A DNA stretch of 64,000 nucleotides. Origin: Nocardioides pocheonensis. Lineage in GTDB: Bacteria > Actinomycetota > Actinomycetes > Propionibacteriales > Nocardioidaceae. Position 1 is the stretch's first letter; every line of letters starts with the position of its first letter. The position numbers were made by a program, and so were the translations under genes. Of this stretch, positions 38,252 to 52,196 are shown piece by piece. Under the pieces are notes generated by a model. The model was not told where the DNA came from and made no database searches. It worked only from the letters and a program-made list of their open reading frames with translations. The DNA lies in the NCBI RefSeq assembly GCF_003725535.1, contig NZ_RJSF01000019.1:42537-106536 (forward strand). The letters run 5' to 3'.

Positions 38252-38646
38252 GCCCCCGCCCCCGGAAACGTGCGTCGCTCTGCGGCGCGCTCTACGCGGT
38301 GCCCCCCGCTCACGGGTGCCGCACCGCCCGTCCCACCTGCCGGGGTCCAGGGCAAGTGTGGTCAACCTAACCCCGCCCGAACAGGACACAACCGGCTTCG
38401 CGAAACCGGCTCCCGCGGGCTAGTCCACCGTGCCTCCTCCCCGCGGGAGCGCCGGCGAACATGACCGGGAACTGACGGTCCGATGACGCGCGCGTGATCG
38501 TTTCCGGGCCGGAATCCGACTGCGGGCATGACGGCGCGCTGACGTGCTGCTGATTTCTCCGCCACTCGCGCATGTTCTGCCCAGCACGCCCTTCACTCTC
38601 GGCGTGGGGTCGTCCGCCCCGTGTGTCGCCGCAGAGGAGCAGAGCC
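38252..38646. promoter_or_regulatory. Divergent regulatory gap with inverted repeats
   Basis: This 395-base gap has no gene. It holds CCGGCTTCGCGAAACCGG (38392-38409), an 18-base near-palindrome centred on TTCGCGAA. Directly after it is a perfect 10-base inverted repeat CTCCCGCGGG (38410-38419) and CCCGCGGGAG (38440-38449). These could bind the response regulator or form RNA hairpins. No clear -10 is seen for the giant gene; the element GCAGAGGAGC (38631-38640) is its RBS. Confidence 0.5.
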
Positions 38647-41600
38647 GTGGCCGTGCATCGAGTGATCCAGCGTTCGCACCCCGTGTGGGTGGTCCTCGCC
38701 ATGGTGGCGAGCCTGCTGCCCGTCGCGGTCTTCACGGCCGTGGTCCAGCCGGCGGCCACCGCCGCGAGCACCGGCTCGATCACCATGACGGTGAAGAGCG
38801 CCCGCAGCGTCGGTGCCGCGGCAGGTCTCGTGCACGAGGGCGACCCCGTGACGACGTACAAGTGGATCGTCAACGAGGACGACACCGGGGACCCCGGCAC
38901 TGCAGCGCACCCGGGCACCGAGAACTGCTGGCCGGCGCGCGCCGGAGCCGGCAGCAGCTCGAACCCCGACTTCGCCGACACCTGCCCGTGGCCGTCGATC
39001 CGCAGCACCTCCGGCTTCGCCCCGATCGTCGCCCAGGGCAACCAGGACGACCTCGCCGCCGGCCACGCCCTCGACGGGCTCGCTCCGGGCAAGTACCTGA
39101 TCAGCGTCACGGCGTCCGGCTTCAAGATCGGGGGCCAGCACTTCACCGTGCCCACGACGGGCGGCACCCAGGCGGTCGACGTGCGGCTCGACCCCACGCC
39201 GCTGCCGCTCAGCACCCTGCGGATCCAGGTCTTCAACGACAACATCCCGGTGGACAGCACCTACGAGGTGGGCGCCGAGCAGCCGCTGGCAGGGTTCACG
39301 GCCCACCTGACCGACGTGTTCGGTGACGTCAGCGTGGACTACTACGGCAACGCGCTGTGCACGATCTACAAGCACGCCAACGCGGACGGCACCGGCCCGA
39401 TGCTGTTCGACGCCGACAACCGGCCGATCATCGACACCTCCGTGTCGACCGGGCGCTGCACGAGCAACGCGCAGGGCGAGATCGTCATCCCCAACATGGG
39501 TCCCGACCGGTACGCCGCGACGGTGACGCCTCCGGCCAACGACCAGAACTGGGTGCAGACCACCACCCTCGAGGGTGGCCGCGACCACGACATGTGGTTC
39601 CAGGAAGGAGAGACCGGCTATGACAACGAGGTCACCAAGGGCGCAGAGCTGGTGCCGATGGTGCAGTTCGGATTCGTGCGACCGAAGGCACTGGCGGTGC
39701 CCGCGACCAACGCCCCCACCGGCGAGATCAAGGGCCTGGTGGTCGCGGGGCTGCCGTACATCGGGGGCAACCCGGGTGGGCTCGCTGTGGAGAACGGCTT
39801 CCCGAACACGCTGAACGGCGGCCCGATCAACAAGCCCTGGGTCGCGCTCAACGACCTCTCCGGCGGTGACGCCGCGATGTACGTCGGTCGGGGAGAGACC
39901 AACGGGACCTTCGACATCAAGAACGTCCCGGACGGCACCTACCAGCTCACACTGTGGGACGACGACCTGGACTACATCCTCTACAGCTTCAACGTCGAGG
40001 TGGCCGACGGTGGCATCACCGACGTCGGGACCAAGGCGATCGTCGGCTGGTTCACCCACATCCACGGGCACGTGTTCATCGACTCCAACGAGAACGGCAA
40101 GCGTGACCCGGGCGAGGCGTCCGTCCCGCAGTTCCCGCTGACGGTGCGTGAGCGCGACAACTCCCTGATGGACCAGGCCGTGAACACGACGTCGACCAAC
40201 GCCAACGGTGCCTACGACATCCGCGAGGTGTACCCGCTCGGCAAGTGGACCGTGCTGGAGGCCTTCGACACCCGCTACCGGACCACCGGCATCTCCTACA
40301 AGGGCGAGAACGAGACCAGCTGGACGACCCGCCTCGGCGGTCTCGTCGACCTGGACTTCCTGCCGATCATCGGGCTGGGCGGCGAGATCGACTGGGGCGT
40401 CCAGCCCTACCAGGGCGCCGAGAACGGCGGGATCGTCGGCACGGTCACCTACGACACCACCCGCAACGAGCTCGACCCGGCCGACGCCGCGACCGAGGGC
40501 TACCAGCCCGGGATCCCCGGCATCGACGTGCGCCTGTACGCCAGCGTCCCCTGCCAGGCCACCACGGACGCCGACAAGGCCAACGAGTGCCGGCAGGGCA
40601 AGGAGATCGTGCCCCTGCAGGTGCCCGACCCGAACAACGCCGGAGCGATGATCGACAACCCGTCGGCCGACCGGGGTTCGCTGGTCAAGGGCCCCGAGCT
40701 GTCCGACGCGTACACCTCCGAGAAGTGGGACGCTCCGCGCGGCTGCACGGCGTACGACTTCAACGGTGACCCGCTCACCGACCAGCGGGCGCTGCCCGAC
40801 TTCGGGTCGGACGCGAACCACCTCTGCCTGGAGTCGCCCATGATGGGCGTCGCCATCAACCCCAGCGACACCACGCCCGGCAACGCCGGACAGACGGTCA
40901 ACGGCAACTACGGGTTCGCCACGTCGAAGCTGAACCTGTACGCGCCCGGCAACCCCAAGAACCCGGCGCCGAACCACGACTTCCCGCTGTACGGCAACCT
41001 CGCCGACGCGGGCTACCCCGAGCAGGACCTGGGCGCCGGCGACTACATCGTGGCCGTCGACATCCCGGACAACCCGGTCGGCGGCGGCAAGATGTACAAG
41101 GCCACGAGCGAGGGCGACGTCAACGTCTTCACCGGTGACGGCTACCTCCCGCAGGAGAACATGTCGTCGATCACCCCGGCGGAGCAGGCCGACCCGCCGG
41201 GCCCGCCGGCCCCCGACCCCACGCCGCCGTCGCAGCCGCCGTCGCAGCAGGCAGGCATCATCTCGCCCTGCGCCGGACCGCTGCACAAGGTCGACGTGAC
41301 CGAGGACAGCAACCCGGACTTCCTCGCCGGCGGTGGCAGCCCGTTCCAGGGACAGGACCGCCCGTCCTGCGACGCCAAGCTCGTCACCGTGCGCGCCGGC
41401 CAGGCGACCGCACCGAACTTCAACCTGTTCACCGACGTGCCGATCCCCACGCACTTCTGGGGCCTGACCCTGAACGACCTCGGCCTGAGCTACGACAAGC
41501 GCTCGATCCAGTACGGCGAGGCGCAGCCGCTGCCGTTCGTGCCGATGGGCCTCTACGACTGGGCCGGTCGCCTGGTCGACACCGTGCACACCGACTCCAA

Positions 41601-44025
41601 CGGCTACTACGAGGCGCTCGAGCCGTCGACGTCGACGTACAACTGCCCGGTCCCGGCCGGACCGTGCCCGAACATGTACCGCTTCGTCGGCAACGACCCG
41701 GGCCAGCCGGGGCACCTCAACTCCGACTACAACCCGAGGTTCCGCACGATCGCGGCCACCTTCCAGGGCTGGCCGGGCCTGTACACGGTGACCGACACCG
41801 CGCCCACCCAGGTGGCCAACACGATCATCGACCCGGGCACCACGAACGCCAACCCGGCGCAGTGCGACCTCGGTGACGGGTTCCCGCAGCTGTTCTCGGT
41901 GAGCCGGCCCTACGTCCGCCAGAACACGACCGGTGACACCCGTCAGGTGGTCGTGAAGGGCGTCCACTTCGGCGGCTCCGCCGGCACCCTCCGGCTCGGC
42001 AGCACCGTGGTGCCGACGACCTCGTGGACCGACAGCCAGATCGGGTTCACCGTGCCCGCGTCGCTGAGTGGTCCCCAAGCGATCTCGATCACGCGGTCCG
42101 ACGGCGCGACCGGGTACAACACGGTCACGATCCAGGTGCTGGCACGAGCCTTCGGCGCGAACTCTGCGACCAACCCGGCGGTCTTCGAGGTCGGCCCCGG
42201 CAAGCAGTACGCGACGGTCCAAGCGGCGATCAACGCAGCCCGACCGACCCTGCTGCGGCGCTACTCGCTCGTGGTGGTCTGGCCGAACGCGCAGACCTCG
42301 GCGAACCCGCGGGGCGAGTACACCGAGAACCTTCTGGTCGGCCACCGGATGCGGATCCAGGGCGTCGGTCCCGGCGGCTTCACCGCCTCCGGCGACTACG
42401 TTCCGGGGTCCGTCATCGACGGGCTCGGGTTCAACCCGGACAACGCCCAAGGCGCTGCCTGGCTGACCCTGCTCACCTCCCTGCGCTACACCGGGGACCC
42501 GCAGGTGCCCGACGGCGCGGTGGTGACGTTCCTGCACGACCCGCTCGAGCTGGGTCTGTACGACCCGGCCCTGGACGGCTTCACCATCACCGGCGGCGTC
42601 CAGCAGAACTTCCCGGCCAACGTGAACACGCTGCCCGGTGCGGTGAGCACGCCGTACGGCGCCACGGGTGCTCTGGTCACCCAGGGTGGCGGTGTCTACG
42701 TCCACGACCGCGTGCAGAACCTGCAGCTCACCGACAACGTGATCGTCGGCAACGGCGGCTCGTACGGCGGTGGCATCCGGGTCGGCACGCCGTACCTGAG
42801 CAGCAGCAACACCGGTCTGACGATCGCGCGCAACCAGATCCGTGACAACGGCGGCACGAACCTCGCCGGCGGCGTCGGGATCTTCGCGGGCAGCGGCGGC
42901 TACCGGGTGACCAACAACGCCATCTGCGGAAACTTCTCCGCGGAGTACGGCGGTGGCGTGTCGGCGTACGGCTACCAGGGCAGCACCGGCGGTCGGATCG
43001 ACCACAACCGGATCTGGTTCAACGGCTCGTACGACGAGGGCGGCGGCGTGATGGTCGCCGGCGAGCTGCCGAGCAGCCCGACCGCGCTGTCGCAGGGCAG
43101 TGGGCCGGTCTCCATCGACCACAACCAGGTCTCGACCAACATCGCCAACGACGACGGCGGCGGGATCAGGCTGCTCCAGGCCAGTGGCAGCCACATCACC
43201 CAGACCCAGCGCGAGACGATCTCGATCGTCGACAACGACGTCGTGAACAACGTCTCGGCGCACGAGGGTGGCGGGATCGCCCTGGACGACGCGGTCTTCG
43301 TGGACATCGTCGGCAACACGATCGCCCGCAACGTCACGACCGCGACCGCGGTCACCACCGACGGCATGCCTGCTCCGGCCGGCCTGTCGACCGCGACGAA
43401 CAGCGACCCGCTCCAGGCCAGGCTCCGCAACGGGACCTTCTTCACCCAGAACCGCAGCCAGGTCCTCGCGAACACCACGTTCAGCAAGCCGACGCTGCTC
43501 GACAACGTGTTCTGGGACAACCGGGCAGGCACGTTCACCGACGGCACGGTCACGGGCATCGGCGTCCGACCCGACGGCACCGACGGCGGCGTGGAGAACT
43601 GGGACATGGGGATGACCGACACCCCGCTGGGCCTCCTGAGCCCGCGTGGCTCGGTGATCCAGACGACCCGGGGCACCGACGTCAGCACCGGCGCCCCGAA
43701 CACGAACCGGATCACCGACGCGGTCAGCGTCAAGGACCCGTTCGACCTGACGGTCGACGTGCTCGCCTCGCGCACCTACCCGGCGTTCCGGCAGTCGACG
43801 ATCGTCGCCCAGGTGCTGCCGCCGAACCTGCTCGGCGACTACCACCTCACGGGGACGGGATCGCCGGCGTACGGAGCGGGTCTCGCGTCCCTGCTGGTGG
43901 TCTGGGGCAGCTCGTCGAACCCGAGCCAGCGGCTCCAGTACACCGTGTCGGCCCCGACCGACGACCGCGAGGGCGATCCGCGCGGGACCCGGTACGACGC
44001 GGGCGCAGACCAGGTCAGGCCGTGA
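38647..44025 (+). CDS. Giant secreted SdrD/IPT/beta-helix protein (1,792 aa)
   Basis: A signal peptide (VWVVLAMVASLLPVAVFTAVVQPAATAAS) ends near residue 43. The N-terminal half is a chain of prealbumin-like beta domains. One, at about residues 472-548, has the SdrD B-like calcium motif FIDSNENGKRDPGE. A Pro-rich linker follows at about 846-871, and an IPT/TIG domain at about 1081-1165 (SRPYVRQNTTGDTRQVVVKGVHFGG...). The last 550 residues (from about 1181) form a right-handed parallel beta-helix with PbH1-like GGG and NxI repeats. There is no LPXTG or membrane anchor. GTG at 38647 with RBS GAGGAG is chosen. It heads the oxidase operon; an extracellular scaffold or adhesin is inferred. Confidence 0.88.
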   Translation: MAVHRVIQRSHPVWVVLAMVASLLPVAVFTAVVQPAATAASTGSITMTVKSARSVGAAAGLVHEGDPVTTYKWIVNEDDTGDPGTAAHPGTENCWPARAGAGSSSNPDFADTCPWPSIRSTSGFAPIVAQGNQDDLAAGHALDGLAPGKYLISVTASGFKIGGQHFTVPTTGGTQAVDVRLDPTPLPLSTLRIQVFNDNIPVDSTYEVGAEQPLAGFTAHLTDVFGDVSVDYYGNALCTIYKHANADGTGPMLFDADNRPIIDTSVSTGRCTSNAQGEIVIPNMGPDRYAATVTPPANDQNWVQTTTLEGGRDHDMWFQEGETGYDNEVTKGAELVPMVQFGFVRPKALAVPATNAPTGEIKGLVVAGLPYIGGNPGGLAVENGFPNTLNGGPINKPWVALNDLSGGDAAMYVGRGETNGTFDIKNVPDGTYQLTLWDDDLDYILYSFNVEVADGGITDVGTKAIVGWFTHIHGHVFIDSNENGKRDPGEASVPQFPLTVRERDNSLMDQAVNTTSTNANGAYDIREVYPLGKWTVLEAFDTRYRTTGISYKGENETSWTTRLGGLVDLDFLPIIGLGGEIDWGVQPYQGAENGGIVGTVTYDTTRNELDPADAATEGYQPGIPGIDVRLYASVPCQATTDADKANECRQGKEIVPLQVPDPNNAGAMIDNPSADRGSLVKGPELSDAYTSEKWDAPRGCTAYDFNGDPLTDQRALPDFGSDANHLCLESPMMGVAINPSDTTPGNAGQTVNGNYGFATSKLNLYAPGNPKNPAPNHDFPLYGNLADAGYPEQDLGAGDYIVAVDIPDNPVGGGKMYKATSEGDVNVFTGDGYLPQENMSSITPAEQADPPGPPAPDPTPPSQPPSQQAGIISPCAGPLHKVDVTEDSNPDFLAGGGSPFQGQDRPSCDAKLVTVRAGQATAPNFNLFTDVPIPTHFWGLTLNDLGLSYDKRSIQYGEAQPLPFVPMGLYDWAGRLVDTVHTDSNGYYEALEPSTSTYNCPVPAGPCPNMYRFVGNDPGQPGHLNSDYNPRFRTIAATFQGWPGLYTVTDTAPTQVANTIIDPGTTNANPAQCDLGDGFPQLFSVSRPYVRQNTTGDTRQVVVKGVHFGGSAGTLRLGSTVVPTTSWTDSQIGFTVPASLSGPQAISITRSDGATGYNTVTIQVLARAFGANSATNPAVFEVGPGKQYATVQAAINAARPTLLRRYSLVVVWPNAQTSANPRGEYTENLLVGHRMRIQGVGPGGFTASGDYVPGSVIDGLGFNPDNAQGAAWLTLLTSLRYTGDPQVPDGAVVTFLHDPLELGLYDPALDGFTITGGVQQNFPANVNTLPGAVSTPYGATGALVTQGGGVYVHDRVQNLQLTDNVIVGNGGSYGGGIRVGTPYLSSSNTGLTIARNQIRDNGGTNLAGGVGIFAGSGGYRVTNNAICGNFSAEYGGGVSAYGYQGSTGGRIDHNRIWFNGSYDEGGGVMVAGELPSSPTALSQGSGPVSIDHNQVSTNIANDDGGGIRLLQASGSHITQTQRETISIVDNDVVNNVSAHEGGGIALDDAVFVDIVGNTIARNVTTATAVTTDGMPAPAGLSTATNSDPLQARLRNGTFFTQNRSQVLANTTFSKPTLLDNVFWDNRAGTFTDGTVTGIGVRPDGTDGGVENWDMGMTDTPLGLLSPRGSVIQTTRGTDVSTGAPNTNRITDAVSVKDPFDLTVDVLASRTYPAFRQSTIVAQVLPPNLLGDYHLTGTGSPAYGAGLASLLVVWGSSSNPSQRLQYTVSAPTDDREGDPRGTRYDAGADQVRP

Positions 44026-44098: not shown

Positions 44099-45379
44099 AT
44101 GACCGACCAGAACTCGCGGGCCGCTGGTGAGCGACCCCTCAGCCGGAGGGCACTCCTGACCGGGTCTCTCGGGGTCGGCATCGTCGTGGCCGGGGCGCGC
44201 TCCTCCATGGGTGCTTCGTCCGGGCCGAGCACGCTCGCGCGGCTGGCCGGGACGGCGCACCCGCAGAAGACCGTGCACCTCGCGGGCACGGACGGCTGGG
44301 TCTCGATGCCGGCCGGGTCGCCGGCGGACGCGCCGTTCTTCCCCGACAGCCTCGCACCCGACCCGTTCAACACCTACGTGTTCGGGTTCCGCGACGTGAC
44401 CGGGATGACCGCGCAGCAGGTCGCCGCGCAACGGGGCAAGGCGCAGATCAGCGCGCCGATGCTGTCCTTCGACGAGGAGGACGACATCACCATCACGCTG
44501 TCCAACCTCGGGCTCCTCGTCCGGCCGGACCTGTTCGACGGTCACACGTTGCACTGGCACGGGTTCGTCAACGCGATCCCGCTGTTCGACGGCGTTCCGG
44601 AGCTGTCGCTCGCCGTGCCGGTGGGCCGCGACTTCTCCTACTTCTACCGCCCTCACGACGCCGGCACGTACATGTACCACTGCCACTTCGAGGACGTCGA
44701 GCACGTGCAGATGGGCATGACCGGGATGGTGTTCATCCGGCCGGCCCAGAACAAGGCGCCCGTGGGATCGGACCCGCTGGGCACGAAGTACGCCTACAAC
44801 GACCACGACGGCTCGACCCGCTACGACCGCGAGTTCGCGTTCATGCTCACCGAGCTCTGGTCGGCGGCCCACTACCGCGACGCGCACATCCAGGTCAGCG
44901 ACTGGACCGACTACGACCCGAGCTTCTGGTTGCTCAACGGTCGCGGCTACCCCGACACGCTCCAGCCCGGCGGCGACCCGCTGTCGACCGCCGCGGGACG
45001 GCTGCAGTACCAGCCGATCACCTCGCTGGTGCGCTGCAACGCAGGGGACCGGGTGCTGCTGAGGATGTCCAACCTGGGCTACCAGAACCACGCGATGACC
45101 GTCGACAACATCGACCTCACGATCGTGGCGAAGGACGCCAGCCTGCTCAAGGGCCGCGACGGCACGCAGAACTACATCGTGACGAACACGGTCGACGTGG
45201 GACCCGGCGAGAGCAGGGACGTGATCTTCGTGGCTCCCGGGCCCGGCGAGTACCTCCTCTACGACCGCAACTACTCCTACCTGGCCAACGGCGGTGGGCC
45301 CGGCTACGGCGGGATGATGACGAAGATCCTCGTCGGCGCGCCGGGCACCTATCCCGCCCAGTCGGCCGCGAACGCCTGA
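44099..45379 (+). CDS. Multicopper oxidase 1 (type 1 Cu plus half trinuclear site)
   Basis: This 426-residue two-cupredoxin protein has a Tat signal (LSRRALLTGSLGVGIVVAG). Domain 1 has H149-T-L-H152-W-H154-G and H194-C195-H196-x5-H202-x4-M207. That is a full type 1 copper set (H149, C195, H202, M207) and four trinuclear-type histidines (H152, H154, H194, H196). Domain 2 has lost the matching ligands: only YQNHAMTVDN and LLYDRNYSY stand where HxH and HxH are expected. Alone it lacks a complete trinuclear centre. RBS GAGGAG lies upstream. It is followed 20 bases later by oxidase 2, which carries the complementary histidines. Ligand roles are inferred from motif spacing. Confidence 0.9.
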   Translation: MTDQNSRAAGERPLSRRALLTGSLGVGIVVAGARSSMGASSGPSTLARLAGTAHPQKTVHLAGTDGWVSMPAGSPADAPFFPDSLAPDPFNTYVFGFRDVTGMTAQQVAAQRGKAQISAPMLSFDEEDDITITLSNLGLLVRPDLFDGHTLHWHGFVNAIPLFDGVPELSLAVPVGRDFSYFYRPHDAGTYMYHCHFEDVEHVQMGMTGMVFIRPAQNKAPVGSDPLGTKYAYNDHDGSTRYDREFAFMLTELWSAAHYRDAHIQVSDWTDYDPSFWLLNGRGYPDTLQPGGDPLSTAAGRLQYQPITSLVRCNAGDRVLLRMSNLGYQNHAMTVDNIDLTIVAKDASLLKGRDGTQNYIVTNTVDVGPGESRDVIFVAPGPGEYLLYDRNYSYLANGGGPGYGGMMTKILVGAPGTYPAQSAANA

Positions 45380-45399
45380 AGCCCACGAGGAGACCTGCC

Positions 45400-46707
45400 A
45401 TGACCACAACCGGAAAGCTCCGGACCAGGTTCGCCGAGCGCCGCGTCACGATCGGCCTCGCCCTCACCGCACTGCTCCTGGCCGGTGTGCCGGCGATGTC
45501 CACGGCCGGTGCGGCCACCTCCGAGGGCCTCGAGTGCGCGTCGGCGACCCAGCAGACCTTCAACCTGACCGCCGGCGACGGCTACGTCAGCACGCCCGAC
45601 GGCAACTCGCTCTACATGTGGAGCTACGGGATGTCCTCGGGCGGCTTCCAGCTGCCGGGTCCGACGCTGTGCGTCGTCTCCGGGCAGAAGGTCACGGTGG
45701 TGCTGCACAACACGCTGCCCGAGGAGACCTCGATCGTCTTCCCCGGCCAGCGCGGCGTGACGGCCGACGGTGACCCGGCCCAGCCGCAGCTCAACGCCAC
45801 CGGCGGGATGACCTCGATGGTGCAGGCGGCGGACGCGAACAGCGGCTCGGTGACCTACGAGTTCACGGCCGGCAGCCCGGGCACCTACCTCTACGAGTCG
45901 GGCACGGACATGAACAAGCAGGTCCAGATGGGCCTGTACGGCGCGCTCGTCGTCCGGCCGGCCGGGCATCCCGACCAGGTCAACAACCGCGCCGACTCGA
46001 AGTTCGACCCCCAGCACGAGTACGTCTTCCTGCTCTCCGAGGTCGACCCCGACCTGCACCTCGCGGTGGAGCGGCACGACCCGGTGGACTGGTCGTCGTA
46101 CCGGGCCCGCTACTTCATGATCAACGGCCGGAGCATGCCGGACACGCTGGCCCCGAACCACGCGTCCTGGCTGCCCCACCAGCCGTACGGGGCCCTGGTC
46201 CACATCAAGCCGTACGACGCCTCGACCAACCCTGATCCGGCGGTGATCCGCTACCTCAACGCCGGCACCGTGAACTACCCCTTCCACCCGCACGGCAGCG
46301 ACGAGCGGGTCGTGAACACCGACGGGCAGGCGCTGGCCGGCAGCAACGCCGAGGACCTGTCCTACCTGAAGTACGACATCGACGTGCAGCCGGGGCAGTC
46401 GGTCGACGCTCTCATGGACTGGCGCGACGCGGAGCACTGGAACGCCTCGACGAACCCCATCCCGACGACGATCCCGGCGATCACCGACCAGCTGCTCGTC
46501 GGACCGGACACGTGGTTCAGCGAGTCGCCGTACCTCGGCTCGAAGGGCGCGGTTCCCACGAACATCACCGACAACAACCAGTGCGGTGAGTACTACCACG
46601 TGGCGCACAGCCACGCGCTGGAGCAAGCCACCAACTACGGCGCGACCTTCGGGGGGATGATGACGGTCTTCCGCATCGACCCGCCCGCCGGTTGCCCGGC
46701 GAACTGA
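45400..46707 (+). CDS. Multicopper oxidase 2 (trinuclear half only)
   Basis: This 435-residue secreted paralogue has a signal near residues 15-38 (RRVTIGLALTALLLAGVPA). Domain 1 is stripped: the HWHG position reads VFPG and the HCH position reads YESGTDMNKQVQMG. Domain 2 keeps Y293-P-F-H296-P-H298-G and H400-V-A-H403-S404-H405. These are the two HxH pairs of a trinuclear site, with the type 1 His replaced by Tyr293 and the type 1 Cys by Ser404. It therefore cannot bind type 1 copper there, but it can supply the four histidines missing from oxidase 1. RBS GAGGAG. A subunit role is inferred. Confidence 0.88.
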   Translation: MTTTGKLRTRFAERRVTIGLALTALLLAGVPAMSTAGAATSEGLECASATQQTFNLTAGDGYVSTPDGNSLYMWSYGMSSGGFQLPGPTLCVVSGQKVTVVLHNTLPEETSIVFPGQRGVTADGDPAQPQLNATGGMTSMVQAADANSGSVTYEFTAGSPGTYLYESGTDMNKQVQMGLYGALVVRPAGHPDQVNNRADSKFDPQHEYVFLLSEVDPDLHLAVERHDPVDWSSYRARYFMINGRSMPDTLAPNHASWLPHQPYGALVHIKPYDASTNPDPAVIRYLNAGTVNYPFHPHGSDERVVNTDGQALAGSNAEDLSYLKYDIDVQPGQSVDALMDWRDAEHWNASTNPIPTTIPAITDQLLVGPDTWFSESPYLGSKGAVPTNITDNNQCGEYYHVAHSHALEQATNYGATFGGMMTVFRIDPPAGCPAN

Positions 46708-46717
46708 GGACCGTGCG

Positions 46718-49700
46718 ATGAACACCACCCGACCGAGTTCCTCCTTCGGTGCTCACCTTCTTCTCACCGTCCTGACCACCCTGGCGCTGGTCGCGGCCGT
46801 CACCTCCCTGGTGGCCGCGCCGGCCCGCGCAGCCCGATCGGCGTCGACCGGGGTGCGCGTGGCCGCCCCCCAGGCCGTCGCCCCCGGTTCCGCCGCCGAA
46901 CCGCGTGCGGTCGCCCCCCAGGCCGCAGCCGCGGTCGGCAAGCTGACGCCGTCGGGCTGCGTGCGGGCCGCTGGCAACGCCCAGTGCGACCTGTACGCGA
47001 TGGGCGGGAGCACGCAATTGCTCGGCCAGACCCTGCCGATCTGGGGGTTCTCCACGACCGGAGCGGCCGGTAGCGCGACTGCACCCGGCCCGGTGCTGGT
47101 CGTGCAGCAAGGGGACACGGTGTCGATCACCCTGCACAACCAGCTGTCGGACAACGTCTCCCTGTCCCTGCCCGGGCAGCCGGCTTCAGCGTTCACGCAG
47201 GGCCTCTCGGCAGCCGACCAGACCACCGGCGCGACACCGGGCGGCACCGCGACGTACACGTTCCACGCGGACCGTCCCGGCACGTTCCTCTACGAGGCCG
47301 GTCACACCCCGCAGGGTGCCCGTCAGGTGGCGATGGGACTGGCGGGTGCGCTGGTGGTCCTGCGCACCGACGCCACCGCCTCCGGCCACGCCTTCGACGA
47401 CGAGTCGGTCGTCGTGCTCAGCGACATGGACCCGCGGCTGAACGCCGCTCCGGCGACCTTCGACATGCGCAGCTACCGGGCCCAGTGGCGGCTGATCAAC
47501 GGCAAGCCGTTCCCGTCCACCAACCCGATCGCCACGGACCAGGGCCACACCGTCCTGCTGCGCTACGTGAACGCCGGCAGTGTCGCGCACCCGATGAGCC
47601 TGCTCGGCGCCAACCAGCTCGAGGTGGCGCAGGACGGTCACGACTTCCCGCAGGCGCTGCGCACGGTCGTCGCCGAGGTGGACTCGGGCACGACCCTCGA
47701 CGCGCTGGTGACGATGCCCAGCGGCCCGGAGTCCCGCGTGACCCTGTACGAGACCGGGTCCCACCTGGACAACGTCGGCCAGACCGAGCTCGACCCGACC
47801 AAGGTCGCGGTCGGAGGCATGATGACCTTCCTCGACACGCAGGCGCCGCCGCCGACCAGCGACCTCGTCGGGCCCTCGCCGAGCAACGTCACGGTCACCC
47901 CGTCGCGCTCGGCCGGCACCGCGCCGGTCACGGTCACCGCAGACCTCAGCGACGTGCGCCACGGCGGCTCCAACGTGACCGCTGCCGAGTTCGTCGTGGA
48001 CGACCCGTCGGTCGCCGTCGGGAACGGCATCCCGATGGGCCCCGCAGCGGCGTTCGGCACTCCCACGGCCAGTGTGACCGGGACGATCCCGGTCTCACCG
48101 CCGGCCGGGCAGACCTGCACGCCGGCCACCGGCCCGGTCCCGGTGACCCTCGAGTGCCTCTCGGCCGGGAAGCACATCGTCTACGTCCGCGGCCAGGACT
48201 CCGCGCACAACTGGGGAGTCGTCGGCTCGGTCGTGCTGAACCTGCCCAAGACGGGTCCGACGACCCGCGACGCGACCACCACCCCGGCCGTCGCGAACGG
48301 GACGGGTCCGGTCGCAGTGTCGGCCACGGGTGACGACAGCGCGGCCGACGGCCTGATCGACGGCGCCGAGCTCTTCCTCGACGCGATCGGGAGCGACGGC
48401 TCCGGTACGCCGATGCTGCTCAACCGGTCCGCGGCGATCGTCAGCGAGGACCTGACCGTCCCGGCAGCGCTGCCGGCCGGCCAGACGTGCGCCACCCAGC
48501 CGCTGGTGGCGGCCTGCCTCTCGGAGGGGACGCACCACCTGTACCTGCACAGCCACGACGACCTCGGTCTGTGGGGCCCCGTGCTCGACGTGCCGTTCAG
48601 GGTCGACCGGACCGGGCCGGCCGTGGATGCGGCGAGCGTGACACCGAACCCGAGCAACGGCCTCCTATCGCCTCCGGGTGACAGCGGGTACCTGAGGGTC
48701 TCGGCCCTGATCACCGACCGCGACTCGCTCAGCGGCGCGCTGCAGGGCAAGGTCGTCCGTGCCGAGGGCTTCTTCGCACCGTCGTCGACGAACCCGGCCC
48801 CGGGGTCAGGCTTCGCCCTGCTCCCGGTCGACGGGACGCTCGACTCCACCAGCGAGAACGTCTACGGGCTGATCCCGCTGTCGCAGGTGCGGGTCAAGGC
48901 CAACGGCACCTACCAGGTGCTGGTCCGCGGCAAGGACGACGCGGGCAACTGGGGTGCCCTGTTCGCGGTCTCGCTCGTGATCGACAAGACCGCACCGACC
49001 CTGGGTGCCCTCACCGCCTCGCCGAACCCGACTGCAGGCGCAGCCAACCTCACGCTGACCGCCCCGGTCACCGGCGACACGTCGTTCCAGACCGCGGAGC
49101 TGTGGACCGGCACGACCGATCCGGGCGTGGGCAAGGCGACGCGCGTCAACGTCGGCTACGTCAACGGCTCGGTCGTGGTGACCGTCCCGCTGGCCGGGTA
49201 CCCCTCCGGCAGCAGGCAGTTCAACCTCCGGGTCCAGGACATGGCCGGCAACTGGAGCAACGCGGCCAGCACGACGGTCACGGTGTCTTCGGCAGGGCTC
49301 CTGTCCGACTCCTTCGAGAGCGGCACCCTGAGCCTGTGGTCCTCGATCACCGGGTCGCCGACCGTCACGACCGCAGCCGGTCTGCTGCCGACCGACGGGA
49401 CGAACAAGGGCATGCAGGTGACGCTGCCGCAGGTCGGCTACGTCGTCGACGACAGCCCGGCGGCGGAGACGGCGTACCACGCCCGGTTCGCCTTCTCGGG
49501 CGCTTCGATGGCGATCCCGAGCGCCAACACCACGGCGATCACGGTGTTCGAGGCCCGGACCGCCTCCGGTTCGGCGTACTCCGTCCAGGTCGGGCGGAGC
49601 GGAGGCGGCACGGGACCTGCCACCCGGGTCCGGATCGTGATGTCGCGGTCCGGGGCCGGGGCGGTCACCGGAGCCTGGGTGAACCTGACGGCCGGAGCCC

Positions 49701-49921
49701 ATCGGCTGCAGACCGACTGGCTGTCGGGACCGGCGACCGGTGCCGGCCAGGGAAGCCTGCGGCTCAGCGTGGACGGCGTGGTGTCGTCGACGCTGACGGG
49801 GAACACCAGCACCCTGCGCATCGAGAGCGTGCGGCTCGGCCTGATCGCGGGCCTCAACAACGCCTGGACGGGTCGAGCATTCTTCGACACGTTCACCTCC
49901 TCGCGAACGAGCCTGCCGTGA
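46718..49921 (+). CDS. Multicopper oxidase-like protein 3, ligand-less, with Ig-like and C-terminal domains
   Basis: This 1,067-residue secreted protein has a Sec signal (LLLTVLTTLALVAAVTSLVAAPARA). Residues to about 390 form two cupredoxin domains homologous to oxidase 2, but HWHG is SLPG, HCH is YEAGHT, and HPxHxHG is HPMSLLG, so nearly all copper ligands are gone. Repeated Ig-like units follow (about residues 400-850, with V-x-V-T-A-D and KTAPTLGALTASPNPT motifs), then a jelly-roll/LamG-like domain (LLSDSFESGTLSLWS to the end). It may be a structural partner of the other two oxidases and bind carbohydrate or cell wall. Its TGA overlaps the next ATG. Confidence 0.85.
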   Translation: MNTTRPSSSFGAHLLLTVLTTLALVAAVTSLVAAPARAARSASTGVRVAAPQAVAPGSAAEPRAVAPQAAAAVGKLTPSGCVRAAGNAQCDLYAMGGSTQLLGQTLPIWGFSTTGAAGSATAPGPVLVVQQGDTVSITLHNQLSDNVSLSLPGQPASAFTQGLSAADQTTGATPGGTATYTFHADRPGTFLYEAGHTPQGARQVAMGLAGALVVLRTDATASGHAFDDESVVVLSDMDPRLNAAPATFDMRSYRAQWRLINGKPFPSTNPIATDQGHTVLLRYVNAGSVAHPMSLLGANQLEVAQDGHDFPQALRTVVAEVDSGTTLDALVTMPSGPESRVTLYETGSHLDNVGQTELDPTKVAVGGMMTFLDTQAPPPTSDLVGPSPSNVTVTPSRSAGTAPVTVTADLSDVRHGGSNVTAAEFVVDDPSVAVGNGIPMGPAAAFGTPTASVTGTIPVSPPAGQTCTPATGPVPVTLECLSAGKHIVYVRGQDSAHNWGVVGSVVLNLPKTGPTTRDATTTPAVANGTGPVAVSATGDDSAADGLIDGAELFLDAIGSDGSGTPMLLNRSAAIVSEDLTVPAALPAGQTCATQPLVAACLSEGTHHLYLHSHDDLGLWGPVLDVPFRVDRTGPAVDAASVTPNPSNGLLSPPGDSGYLRVSALITDRDSLSGALQGKVVRAEGFFAPSSTNPAPGSGFALLPVDGTLDSTSENVYGLIPLSQVRVKANGTYQVLVRGKDDAGNWGALFAVSLVIDKTAPTLGALTASPNPTAGAANLTLTAPVTGDTSFQTAELWTGTTDPGVGKATRVNVGYVNGSVVVTVPLAGYPSGSRQFNLRVQDMAGNWSNAASTTVTVSSAGLLSDSFESGTLSLWSSITGSPTVTTAAGLLPTDGTNKGMQVTLPQVGYVVDDSPAAETAYHARFAFSGASMAIPSANTTAITVFEARTASGSAYSVQVGRSGGGTGPATRVRIVMSRSGAGAVTGAWVNLTAGAHRLQTDWLSGPATGAGQGSLRLSVDGVVSSTLTGNTSTLRIESVRLGLIAGLNNAWTGRAFFDTFTSSRTSLP

Positions 49922-50373
49922 TGCCGCGGCGGTTCGTCCTCAACGTGGTGCTCCTCGCGGTGGTCGCCGTCCTGGCCGCCATGTGCGCGGTGCTGGCGCT
50001 CCGGCTCGGGCCGGAGGCCCGGGGCGCCACGGGGCCGGTGCCGCGCAGCGCCGGGCTCGAGAAGGTCACCGGCGTACGCATCTCGCGCGTCGCGGTGGTC
50101 GGTGACGGGGGTCTCGTGACGGTCTTCTACGTCGTCCTCGACCCGGAGAAGGCCAGCCGGTTCCAGGCCGACCGCGAGCACAGCCCGAGGCTCAGCAGCG
50201 AGCGGCGCGACGGCGGCACCCAGCGCACCTCGATCATGCGCACCGGGCACCAGATGCGGGCCGGCCAGACCTACTACCTCGTCTACCAGAACACCGGGAA
50301 CGCCGTCCGCTCCGGGGAGACGATCACGCTGACCTACGGAGGCCGCGCGCTCCACCACGTCCCGGTGCTGTGA
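49921..50373 (+). CDS. Membrane-anchored small protein, 150 aa
   Basis: One N-terminal helix (FVLNVVLLAVVAVLAAMCAVLALRLG) is followed by an outside domain of about 115 residues with predicted strands (TGVRISRVAVVGDGGLVTVFYVVLD, YYLVYQNTGNAVRSGETITLTYGG). No family is recognised. A HH pair at the C-terminus (ALHHVPVL) and scattered Met/His could bind copper, but this is weak. It is translationally coupled on both sides by TGATG overlaps, between oxidase 3 and CopCD, so it almost certainly serves the same system. Confidence 0.75.
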   Translation: MPRRFVLNVVLLAVVAVLAAMCAVLALRLGPEARGATGPVPRSAGLEKVTGVRISRVAVVGDGGLVTVFYVVLDPEKASRFQADREHSPRLSSERRDGGTQRTSIMRTGHQMRAGQTYYLVYQNTGNAVRSGETITLTYGGRALHHVPVL

Positions 50374-52196
50374 TGCGCAAGGCACCGTCGGTCGTCCTGC
50401 TGGTGCTCGTGGCCGCGTTCGCGGTCCTCGGCGGGGCCGCGCCGGCGGCCGGGCACGCGTACCTCGTCGGAAGCAACCCCGCCGACGGGGACCGGCTCAC
50501 GGGCGCGCCGCCCGAGCTGCGGCTCGACTTCAGCGAGCACGTCGTGCTGGCGGCGACCCGGATCGAGGTGCGCACCGCCGACGGTCGTGAGGTCGCCGTG
50601 GGCGACGTCCGCCTCGAGACCAAGGACGCCGGGGACACCGAGGAGCCGGCCACGATCGTGGCCGCCTTGCCCGACCTCCGGGCCGACGCCTACCGGGTGT
50701 CGTGGGAGACGCTCTCGAGCGACGACCTGCACCGCACCTCCGGACTGATCGTCTTCGGCGTCGGGCGCAACGTCGCGCCGGCGGCGTCCGTGACCTCCAC
50801 GACCCGGCCTGAGGAAGCCCTGCTGCGCGGGGCGCTCCTGGCGTGCATCGCGGTCGCGCTGGGCGGCCTGGTCGCGCGGCGCGTCCTGCTCCGAGCCCTG
50901 ACCGGCCCCTCTGCCGATGCGGCTCAGCGCGTGGTCACGCGCCTCGCCGTCGTCGGTGCCTCGGCGGCTCCGTTGCTGGCGATCGCGCTGTTCGCGGTCC
51001 AGTGGGCCGCGTCCGGCACCGGTCCCGCAGACCTGCTCGTCGGCGGCTACGGTCCCCGGGCGGCGGTCCGGCTGGCCGGGCTGCTCGTCCTGTGTGCGGT
51101 GTGGTGGTCGTGGCGCCGGCGGTCGGTGCTCCCGGGCCGCGCGGCCGCGGTGGCCTGCGTGCTGGTCTCGGTGGGAACAGGCCTGATGGGCCACGCGCCC
51201 TCGGGTGGCAGGAACCTCGTGCACGTGGTCGTGGCGTCGGCCCACGTCGCTGCCGCCCTCAGCTGGGCCGGCGCGCTGGTGTGCCTGGCGGCCGCGATGC
51301 TGTGGGGCTCGGCACGACGGGCGCCGGACGTGCTCGCGACCCTGCACGCGTTCGGACCGGCTGCCGGGGCCTGCCTCGGCGTCACGGTCGTCACGGGGAT
51401 CTACCTCAGCAGCGACACGGTGGTCTCGGTCGACGCCGCCGTCCTGACGACGTACGGGCGCACGCTGATCCTCAAGGTCCTGCTCGTGGCCGTCGCCGGT
51501 GCACTCGGCCTGTGGCACCACCGGCGGGTGCGCGGCCCGCACGACCTGGACCCGCCGCGCCGCACCGTCCTGGCGGAGGCCGGGGTACTGCTGGCCGTGG
51601 TCGGCCTCGCCGGCCTCCTCGCCAGTACGGCGACCGCGACGGACCCTGCGTTCGCGCGGCAGGCCCCGGTCTCCGTCGGCCAGGTCAGCCGACAGGTGAC
51701 CGACCTCCAGCTCGCTGCGGGCCTCAGCCCGAACCGCCGGGGCGACGCGCTCGCGGTCGTCGACGTGTTCGACACGCGGCGGCCCGCTCCGGGGCCGGTG
51801 GTCGGCGTCGACGTCCGGCTGGGCGGCGGTCCCCACGCCGCGGCGGAGCGGCTCGGTGACGGCCGCTGGTCGGCGCCGGTCCGCATCGACGCCGCCGGGC
51901 CGACCACGATCACGGTCACCGTGCTGCGTGCCGGCATGCCGCCCACGGTGACGGACTTCCGGTGGACGGTGCCGGGTGCGCACCCCGCGCGGGGCGTCCT
52001 GATCTCGCACACCCCCGTGCGTCCGCTGCTCCGGTGGTCGGCGGCGGCCCTCGCCGGAGTCCTCCTCGCCGGGTGGACGATCGTGGGGCGGCGCGGGCGA
52101 GCGCGTCGCCCTGCTCACGCGCAGGACCTGCGGCCGCCGCGCGCCGACGAGCTCGACGACCGGCTCGACGACGGGATGACCGCGCGAGAGCGGTGA
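50373..52196 (+). CDS. CopC-CopD fusion copper protein
   Basis: This 607-residue protein has a signal peptide ending before His28 (AAGHAYLVGSNPADGDRL), so the mature protein would begin with the CopC copper-binding His; the second CopC site is D-L-H in SSDDLHRTSGLIVFGV. An eight-helix CopD membrane domain follows (about residues 145-430), then an outside C-terminal domain (about 440-550), one last helix and a charged tail. CopCD proteins bring copper into, or hold it near, the membrane. In this operon the likely job is to supply or sense copper for the oxidases. Start ATG 50373 overlaps the previous stop. Confidence 0.93.
   Translation: MRKAPSVVLLVLVAAFAVLGGAAPAAGHAYLVGSNPADGDRLTGAPPELRLDFSEHVVLAATRIEVRTADGREVAVGDVRLETKDAGDTEEPATIVAALPDLRADAYRVSWETLSSDDLHRTSGLIVFGVGRNVAPAASVTSTTRPEEALLRGALLACIAVALGGLVARRVLLRALTGPSADAAQRVVTRLAVVGASAAPLLAIALFAVQWAASGTGPADLLVGGYGPRAAVRLAGLLVLCAVWWSWRRRSVLPGRAAAVACVLVSVGTGLMGHAPSGGRNLVHVVVASAHVAAALSWAGALVCLAAAMLWGSARRAPDVLATLHAFGPAAGACLGVTVVTGIYLSSDTVVSVDAAVLTTYGRTLILKVLLVAVAGALGLWHHRRVRGPHDLDPPRRTVLAEAGVLLAVVGLAGLLASTATATDPAFARQAPVSVGQVSRQVTDLQLAAGLSPNRRGDALAVVDVFDTRRPAPGPVVGVDVRLGGGPHAAAERLGDGRWSAPVRIDAAGPTTITVTVLRAGMPPTVTDFRWTVPGAHPARGVLISHTPVRPLLRWSAAALAGVLLAGWTIVGRRGRARRPAHAQDLRPPRADELDDRLDDGMTARER

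What the first reader, a model, noticed from the sequence alone, without database searches (positions are those of the whole stretch)
44099..46707. A 'split' multicopper oxidase with its trinuclear site divided between two adjacent genes
Oxidase 1 keeps, in domain 1, a complete type 1 copper set (H149, C195, H202, M207) and four trinuclear-type histidines (H152, H154, H194, H196); its domain 2 has no HxH pairs. Oxidase 2 has the opposite pattern. Domain 1 is stripped, and domain 2 keeps exactly four trinuclear-type histidines (H296, H298, H403, H405), with the type 1 His and Cys replaced by Tyr293 and Ser404. Together they supply the eight histidines a trinuclear centre needs. Known two-domain oxidases build this centre at the interface of domain 1 of one subunit and domain 2 of the next, but from identical subunits. 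Here the two faces seem to have specialised in different genes, giving an obligate hetero-oligomer.
Basis: partly seen in the sequence, partly recalled or inferred. Interest (0 to 1): 0.87.

Follow-up and report, generated by a model that had tools for sequence, protein, structure and literature searches.

The report
Copper oxidase split across three genes
Three neighbouring bacterial genes appear to build one copper enzyme together, two of the proteins each supplying half of the oxygen-reducing metal centre that normally forms between identical protein copies, and the same split recurs in distant bacterial groups.

Summary
Oxidase 1 (44099-45379) carries a full type 1 copper set and four trinuclear-type histidines in domain 1; oxidase 2 (45400-46707) the complementary four in domain 2; the oxidase part of oxidase 3 (46718-49921) has none. 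This is no local accident. In 88 loci (window, 11 relatives, 76 named contigs, mainly Actinomycetota and Chloroflexota) ox2 follows ox1 in 84 of 84 with room, ox3 in 78 of 79. Ligands are nearly invariant; ox2's four are its only conserved histidines. Searches seeded with ox2 showed the split in 7 of 7 and 16 of 17 regions read (several repeat earlier loci). The genes form three old groups. A giant secreted partner is fused to ox3 in one lineage, to ox1 in another. Ox1 has Tat-type leaders; ox2 and ox3 mostly not. Best reading: a 1:1:1 heterotrimer derived from two-domain oxidases, a six-domain ring with one trinuclear site completed after export.

The parts
44099..45379 (+). ox1: two-cupredoxin oxidase subunit with type 1 copper and half of the trinuclear site in domain 1; Tat-type leader by motif; domain 2 stripped of ligands
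44543..44560 (+). ox1 HxxHxH motif (H149, H152, H154)
44678..44719 (+). ox1 HCH(x5)H(x4)M motif (H194, C195, H196, H202, M207)
45400..46707 (+). ox2: two-cupredoxin subunit, domain 1 stripped of ligands, other half of the trinuclear site in domain 2, no type 1 set
46285..46293 (+). ox2 HxH (H296, H298)
46606..46614 (+). ox2 HxH (H403, H405), Ser in place of the type 1 Cys
46718..49921 (+). ox3: two cupredoxin domains (about residues 76-375) without copper ligand motifs, followed by Ig-like segments
38572..44025 (+). giant secreted protein (SdrD_B, TIG, weak beta-helix matches) of the cassette; relatives are fused to ox3 (L111) or to ox1 (L182)
49921..50373 (+). small membrane-anchored protein of the cassette, no Pfam match over cut-off
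50370..52196 (+). CopC-CopD fusion, copper handling; a relative lies downstream in 38 of 69 loci with 6 kb room

Best explanation
The cassette encodes a secreted multicopper oxidase built as a ring of six cupredoxin domains from three paralogous two-domain subunits, ox1:ox2:ox3 probably 1:1:1. Domain 1 of ox1 packs against domain 2 of ox2, and the two make one trinuclear copper centre (four histidines each), fed by the type 1 copper of ox1. The other two domain-1/domain-2 interfaces (ox2-ox3 and ox3-ox1) are vestigial and structural. Electrons enter at the ox1 type 1 copper, pass over His-Cys-His to the trinuclear site and reduce O2 to water. Ox1 leaves the cell folded by Tat and ox2/ox3 by another route (probably Sec), so the active site can be completed only outside the cytoplasm. 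The giant SdrD/beta-helix protein is a structural partner or anchor. Shown: the ligand split, its conservation, gene linkage, three old paralogue groups, fusions of the giant protein, leader types by motif. Inferred: ring, stoichiometry, electron path, place of assembly. Unknown: substrate.
For: Exact complementarity of ligands and its conservation. Ox2 beside ox1 in 84 of 84 loci with room, ox3 in 78 of 79; order 1-2-3 on one strand in 80 of 80 loci with all three. The split holds in regions found with ox2 (7 of 7; 16 of 17) and in a Burkholderiales locus (L111). Ox1, ox2, ox3 each form one group in a 68-row tree. Best solved matches of ox1 and of the ox3 profile include two-domain oxidase 3g5w; in two-domain oxidases residues of two protomers coordinate the trinuclear site (PMC13151041, passages). 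Giant protein fused to ox3 and to ox1. Tat-type leaders: 76 of 86 ox1 against 4 of 71 ox2 and 4 of 68 ox3. Weak support: 49 of the top 50 ox1-ox2 covarying pairs fall in ox2 domain 2 (40 tree simulations: mean 33, max 43).
Against: No model or measurement of the complex. Covariation scores do not exceed the phylogenetic null (max 0.549; simulations mean 0.517, max 0.621); the near-motif windows were drawn after seeing the top pairs; the pairs involve both domains of ox1, not only the predicted domain 1 (26 and 23 of the top 50); and the ox2 domain 1-ox3 domain 2 contact that the ring predicts is not enriched (14 seen, 19 expected in the top 100). L095 lacks ox3 with 4.4 kb downstream. One ox1 has Leu for H194 (L051), one Leu for M207 (L094). 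Ox1 keeps a further conserved histidine of unknown role, H258, 86 of 88.
Confidence: 0.77

Rival explanations
1. Ox1 works alone (homotrimer) as a type 1 copper electron-transfer or nitrite-reductase-like protein, and ox2 is a separate metal-binding protein.
For: Ox1 keeps a full type 1 site; copper nitrite reductases are distant matches. Ox1 has one further conserved histidine, H258, 86 of 88, near the start of the domain 2 region (Pfam Cu-oxidase match 248-390), whose role is unknown.
Against: A pure electron carrier would not need invariant H152/H154/H194/H196. At the places where domain 2 ligands sit in comparators, ox1 has no conserved histidine pair. The four missing histidines are always encoded next door where the contig allows.
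Confidence: 0.1
2. Ox1 and ox2 pair without ox3 (dimer, or a 2:1 ring); ox3 is an accessory scaffold protein.
For: Ox3 has no ligands, carries long Ig-like tails, and is missing in L095.
Against: Ox3 keeps both cupredoxin domains, is in third place in 78 of 79 loci with room, and is a third old paralogue group. A closed ring of two-domain subunits has three places.
Confidence: 0.2
3. The genes are decaying duplicates: ox2 and ox3 are pseudo-oxidases under relaxed constraint.
For: Many ligands are lost; L074 has a broken ox2.
Against: The losses are the same throughout, the retained ligands are invariant, and replacement residues are conserved too (ox2 P115 in 83 and Q117 in 77 of 87 rows with a letter). 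Four cysteines in ox2 are conserved in 85-87 of 86-87 rows.
Confidence: 0.03

Closest known systems
Two-domain multicopper oxidase with type 1 copper in the N-terminal domain (type C as defined in passages of PMC13151041); PDB 3g5w and 2zwn by their sequence
   Same: Two cupredoxin domains, type 1 copper in domain 1, trinuclear histidines divided between domain 1 of one subunit and domain 2 of the next
   Different: [quoted passage not shown] here the halves sit in different genes and a third subunit has none
Six-domain oxidases (ceruloplasmin, MnxG-like bacterial proteins)
   Same: Six cupredoxin domains and at most one trinuclear site (PMC3600357, passages)
   Different: One chain there; site between domains 1 and 6 or 2 and 3, with type 1 copper in domain 2 in the bacterial ones; here three chains, type 1 copper in the first domain of ox1
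Mnx complex MnxG-MnxE3F3
   Same: Hetero-oligomeric multicopper oxidase needing neighbouring genes (PMC5622069, passages)
   Different: [quoted passage not shown] the oxidase is MnxG
Copper nitrite reductase (TIGR02376)
   Same: Related two-domain fold; interface copper site (recalled)
   Different: Far below the curated cut-off; here all eight trinuclear histidines are kept between two proteins

Membership tests
Two-domain multicopper oxidase (type 1 copper in domain 1) | Two cupredoxin domains per chain | tested here: met
   Cu-oxidase_3 above cut-off in ox1, ox2, ox3; second-domain models above cut-off in ox1 (PF00394 26.8 of 21) and ox3 (PF07731 22 of 20.4), just below in ox2 (PF07731 19.8 of 20.4)
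Two-domain multicopper oxidase (type 1 copper in domain 1) | Type 1 copper set in the N-terminal domain | tested here: met
   In ox1 only, 87-88 of 88 per residue; absent in ox2 and ox3
Two-domain multicopper oxidase (type 1 copper in domain 1) | All eight trinuclear histidines in each chain | tested here: not met
   Four in ox1, four in ox2, none in ox3
Two-domain multicopper oxidase (type 1 copper in domain 1) | Homotrimer | not testable with these tools
   Structure prediction switched off
Six-domain multicopper oxidase | Six domains in one chain | tested here: not met
   Three ORFs; among the ORFs none scored as own best for two of the three oxidase profiles
Six-domain multicopper oxidase | One trinuclear site in six domains | tested here: inconclusive
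   Ligand count allows exactly one per ox1+ox2+ox3; ring not shown
CopA-type copper resistance oxidase (TIGR01480) | Score over curated cut-off | tested here: not met
   44.0, 47.8 and 47.4 of 478.95 bits for ox1, ox2, ox3
Copper nitrite reductase (TIGR02376) | Score over curated cut-off | tested here: not met
   29.6, 16.9 and 40.3 of 296.3 bits

The most novel reading that the evidence does not exclude
A ceruloplasmin-like six-domain oxidase made of three gene products exported by two different routes, whose single trinuclear site comes into being only when ox1 and ox2 meet outside the cytoplasm, mounted on a giant beta-helix protein: a heteromeric class of multicopper oxidase, possibly a metal or polymer oxidase, spread over several phyla.
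Probability: 0.5. Interest if true: 0.88.

Novelty: new variant of a known kind. Interest (0 to 1): 0.8.

Why it matters
Two-domain oxidases are discussed as forebears of six-domain, ceruloplasmin-type proteins by triplication and loss of sites (PMC3600357, passages). This cassette shows triplication and reciprocal site loss with the copies still in separate genes, so that step can be studied directly. It also raises the question of how a trinuclear site is loaded when its halves leave the cell by different routes. Two cassette-bearing plasmid records were read; only one (L111) has its genes annotated, and there all cassette proteins are called hypothetical, so the system may be widely overlooked.

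Tried and rejected
Structure prediction of an ox1-ox2-ox3 chain: alignments A4 and A5 were built. In A4, 68 of 123 single-gene rows fell on the wrong block (29 of 42 ox1, 39 of 39 ox3), so A5 used 22 read-through rows plus 40 single-gene rows that fell right.

Covariation was tried with 78 of 88 loci. Scores are within the phylogenetic null; only their placement is unusual, and part of that test is post hoc. Kept as weak support only.

Plasmid searches for relatives: ox2 gave 8 records, all Burkholderiales; ox1 gave 389 records, of which 40 were listed and 10 fetched as comparators, 9 used.

Acidic residues beside the type 1 site (ox1 E198 and E201, 88 of 88) suggested metal oxidation, but they lie inside a scan peptide and the Burkholderiales ox1 reads ITPPEH there, so no substrate is claimed.

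Ten paper searches for an earlier description (open-licence PMC papers only) showed none in the rows listed; held more papers than were listed. Subscription papers and preprints were not covered.

Full report
WHAT IS THERE. The window lies in a 4.9 Mb genome of 50 contigs. I place it in the family of Nocardioides because genome G163, told as 'same family', has a contig of the same length as the record of Nocardioides sp. CER19; this is an inference. On the + strand run a 1817-aa secreted protein (38572-44025), ox1 (44099-45379), ox2 (45400-46707), ox3 (46718-49921), a 150-aa anchored protein (49921-50373) and a CopC-CopD fusion (50370-52196). Gaps are 73 bases or less, or the genes overlap. 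Pfam Cu-oxidase_3 hits all three oxidases above its cut-off (50.1, 45.9 and 49.3 bits against 21).

LIGANDS. Ox1 domain 1 has HTLHWHG and YHCHFEDVEHVQMGM: type 1 set H149, C195, H202, M207 and trinuclear-type H152, H154, H194, H196. Ox1 domain 2 reads NHAMTVDN and LLYDRN at the places where comparators read HPxHxH and HCH. Ox2 domain 1 reads SIVFPGQ and YESGT in place of HxHG and HxH; its domain 2 reads YPFHPHG and HSH. The oxidase part of ox3 has no HxH. Nine of nine single-chain comparators have all four HxH pairs in one chain. The best solved chain for ox1 is 3g5w, E 1.7e-20; for ox2 it is 7rab, E 4.6e-8, matching domain 1 only; for the ox3 profile 3g5w again.

CONSERVATION. Ox1 is found at E <= 1e-20 in 10 of 292 other genomes of the order, 11 places; all 11 regions fetched have giant protein, ox1, ox2 and ox3 in a row (in L024 the giant protein and ox3 are each spread over two ORFs, and in L025-L027 the giant protein is only about 30% identical). 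A scan of genome contigs found 287 relatives among 428 candidate stretches, of which the tool kept the best 80, 79 loci, mainly Actinomycetota and Chloroflexota, with a Methylococcaceae MAG and others. After dropping three duplicates 88 loci were examined (window, 11, 76). Ox2 is present in 84 of 84 loci with 1.5 kb downstream, ox3 in 78 of 79 with 3 kb. In 80 of 80 loci with the three genes the order is 1-2-3 on one strand. Ligands: ox1 H149, H152, H154, C195, H196, H202 88 of 88; H194 and M207 87 of 88; ox2 H296, H298, H403, H405 each 86 of 88 rows with 2 gaps. Other HxH pairs are rare; the exception is ox1 202-204 (HxH in 33 of 88), which starts at the type 1 histidine. The ox3 oxidase part has an HxH in 2 of 81 rows. 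Of columns conserved at 93% or more, ox2 has four histidines, exactly the ligands; ox3 none; ox1 six ligand histidines and H258. Near-identical loci are included, so these are not independent counts (effective number 62 of 78 at 85% identity).

BIAS CHECK. The contig scan selected on GTYMYHC or HFEDVEH, which between them hold four of the ox1 ligands. I therefore searched with the ox2 profile. In the class of the window 8 of 394 genomes had it at E <= 1e-40; 7 regions were read (own excluded) and 7 had ox1 with both motifs next to ox2, one ox2 being cut by the contig end; the ox1 of 5 of the 7 was already in the set. In the phylum of the L079 genome (Chloroflexota) 9 of 400 genomes had it at E <= 1e-60, in the order of the L082 genome (a Methylococcaceae MAG) 9 of 201 at E <= 1e-25. 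Some ox1 found this way match neither scan peptide, for example L181 (TFIYHCHVEAAEH), L186 (TYIYHCHVEATEH) and L179 (TYMFHCHVEDVEH). The low frequency and patchy spread fit horizontal transfer, which I did not test.

PSEUDOMONADOTA VARIANT AND FUSIONS. Records of Cupriavidus metallidurans and Paraburkholderia hold a version with ox1 HTVHFHG/HCHITPPEHLQMGM, ox2 HPFHEHG/WHSH, and a single 2723-aa protein that is ox3 followed by the giant protein (ligands read in L111 only; L110 by profile only). In L182, from the order of the Methylococcaceae genome, a 2256-aa open frame joins the giant protein (about 29-30% identical to the window's, residues 95-1671) to ox1 (residues 1903-2255, 39% identical to window ox1). 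Fusion of one partner to ox3 in one lineage and to ox1 in another argues that they belong to one assembly. The annotated record L111 names these proteins hypothetical.

HISTORY. In a 68-row tree ox1, ox2 and ox3 are each one group (support 99, 90, 99), ox2 and ox3 lie together (99), and eight comparators form a fourth group (95) (quick method, midpoint root). So the triplication and the ligand losses came before the spread of the cassette. The L111 rows have long branches, a caution.

EXPORT. A Tat-like motif is found in 76 of 86 ox1 rows with enough upstream sequence, against 4 of 71 ox2 and 4 of 68 ox3; with a looser motif 86, 17 and 13 (start codons are uncertain). If right, the halves of the trinuclear site leave the cell by different routes and meet outside.

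MECHANISM. Two-domain oxidases are trimers in which residues of two protomers coordinate the trinuclear site (PMC13151041, passages; PMC3192119, passages). Putting ox1, ox2 and ox3 into such a ring gives one complete site, ox1 domain 1 with ox2 domain 2, and two empty ones. That is the make-up of a six-domain oxidase with one site, reached with three chains. Reported six-domain oxidases have their site between domains 1 and 6 or 2 and 3 (PMC3600357, passages), so this is not simply a cut-up MnxG. Ring, stoichiometry and electron path are inferred.

COVARIATION. With 78 loci, 49 of the top 50 ox1-ox2 pairs fall in ox2 domain 2 and 9 lie near the ligand motifs of both proteins (40 simulations on the tree: mean 33, max 43; and mean 1.5, max 5). 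Against this: the highest score is not unusual (0.549; simulations mean 0.517, max 0.621); the near-motif windows were drawn after the first look; the pairs involve ox1 domain 2 (23) about as often as domain 1 (26); and of the other two predicted contacts one is mildly enriched in the top 100 (ox1 domain 2-ox3 domain 1, 36 seen, 27 expected) and one is not (ox2 domain 1-ox3 domain 2, 14 seen, 19 expected). Weak support at most.

LITERATURE. Ten searches of open-licence PMC papers showed, in the rows listed, no description of a trinuclear site divided between paralogous genes (titles and starts of abstracts). A 2017 paper calls MnxG the only characterised multicopper oxidase that requires accessory proteins (PMC5622069, passages). 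Subscription papers were not covered.

VERDICT.

Noticed in passing
38572-44025: Giant secreted protein with SdrD_B and TIG domains and weak beta-helix matches precedes the oxidases; found upstream in 69 of 75 loci with 3 kb room, the six misses including the window itself, where it is plainly present (ORF-choice artefact).
   Followed up: partly
49921-50373: Small anchored protein without a Pfam match over cut-off; relatives downstream of ox3 in 38 of 69 loci with 6 kb room (the window's own copy was missed by the ORF choice).
   Followed up: partly
L182:8972-15742 and L111:11532-19703: Giant protein fused to ox1 in L182 and to ox3 in L111.
   Followed up: yes
45400-46707: Ox2 has four conserved cysteines (C46, C91, C395, C432), possibly two disulfides.
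   Followed up: no
ox1 H331; ox2 Y293: Possible fossils of a type 1 site in domain 2: His at ox1 331 in 51 of 88 and at ox2 293 in 12 of 86 rows with a letter, hinting at an ancestor with type 1 copper in domain 2 as well.
   Followed up: no
ox1 H258: Conserved histidine outside the ligand motifs, 86 of 88, role unknown.
   Followed up: no
L095: Chloroflexi MAG cassette with ox1 and ox2 but no detectable ox3 in 4.4 kb downstream.
   Followed up: partly
   Followed up: no
L074:2710-3725: Ox2 is broken into two frames in this MAG contig.
   Followed up: no
L071, L092: Ox3 core lies deep inside very long open frames (2579 and 1914 aa).
   Followed up: no
G000 contig C43:353437-353724 (L109): One more Cu-oxidase_3 match elsewhere in the own genome, not examined; the same genome search listed ox2 and ox3 but not ox1, although ox1 scores 50.1 bits by hmmscan.
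   Followed up: no
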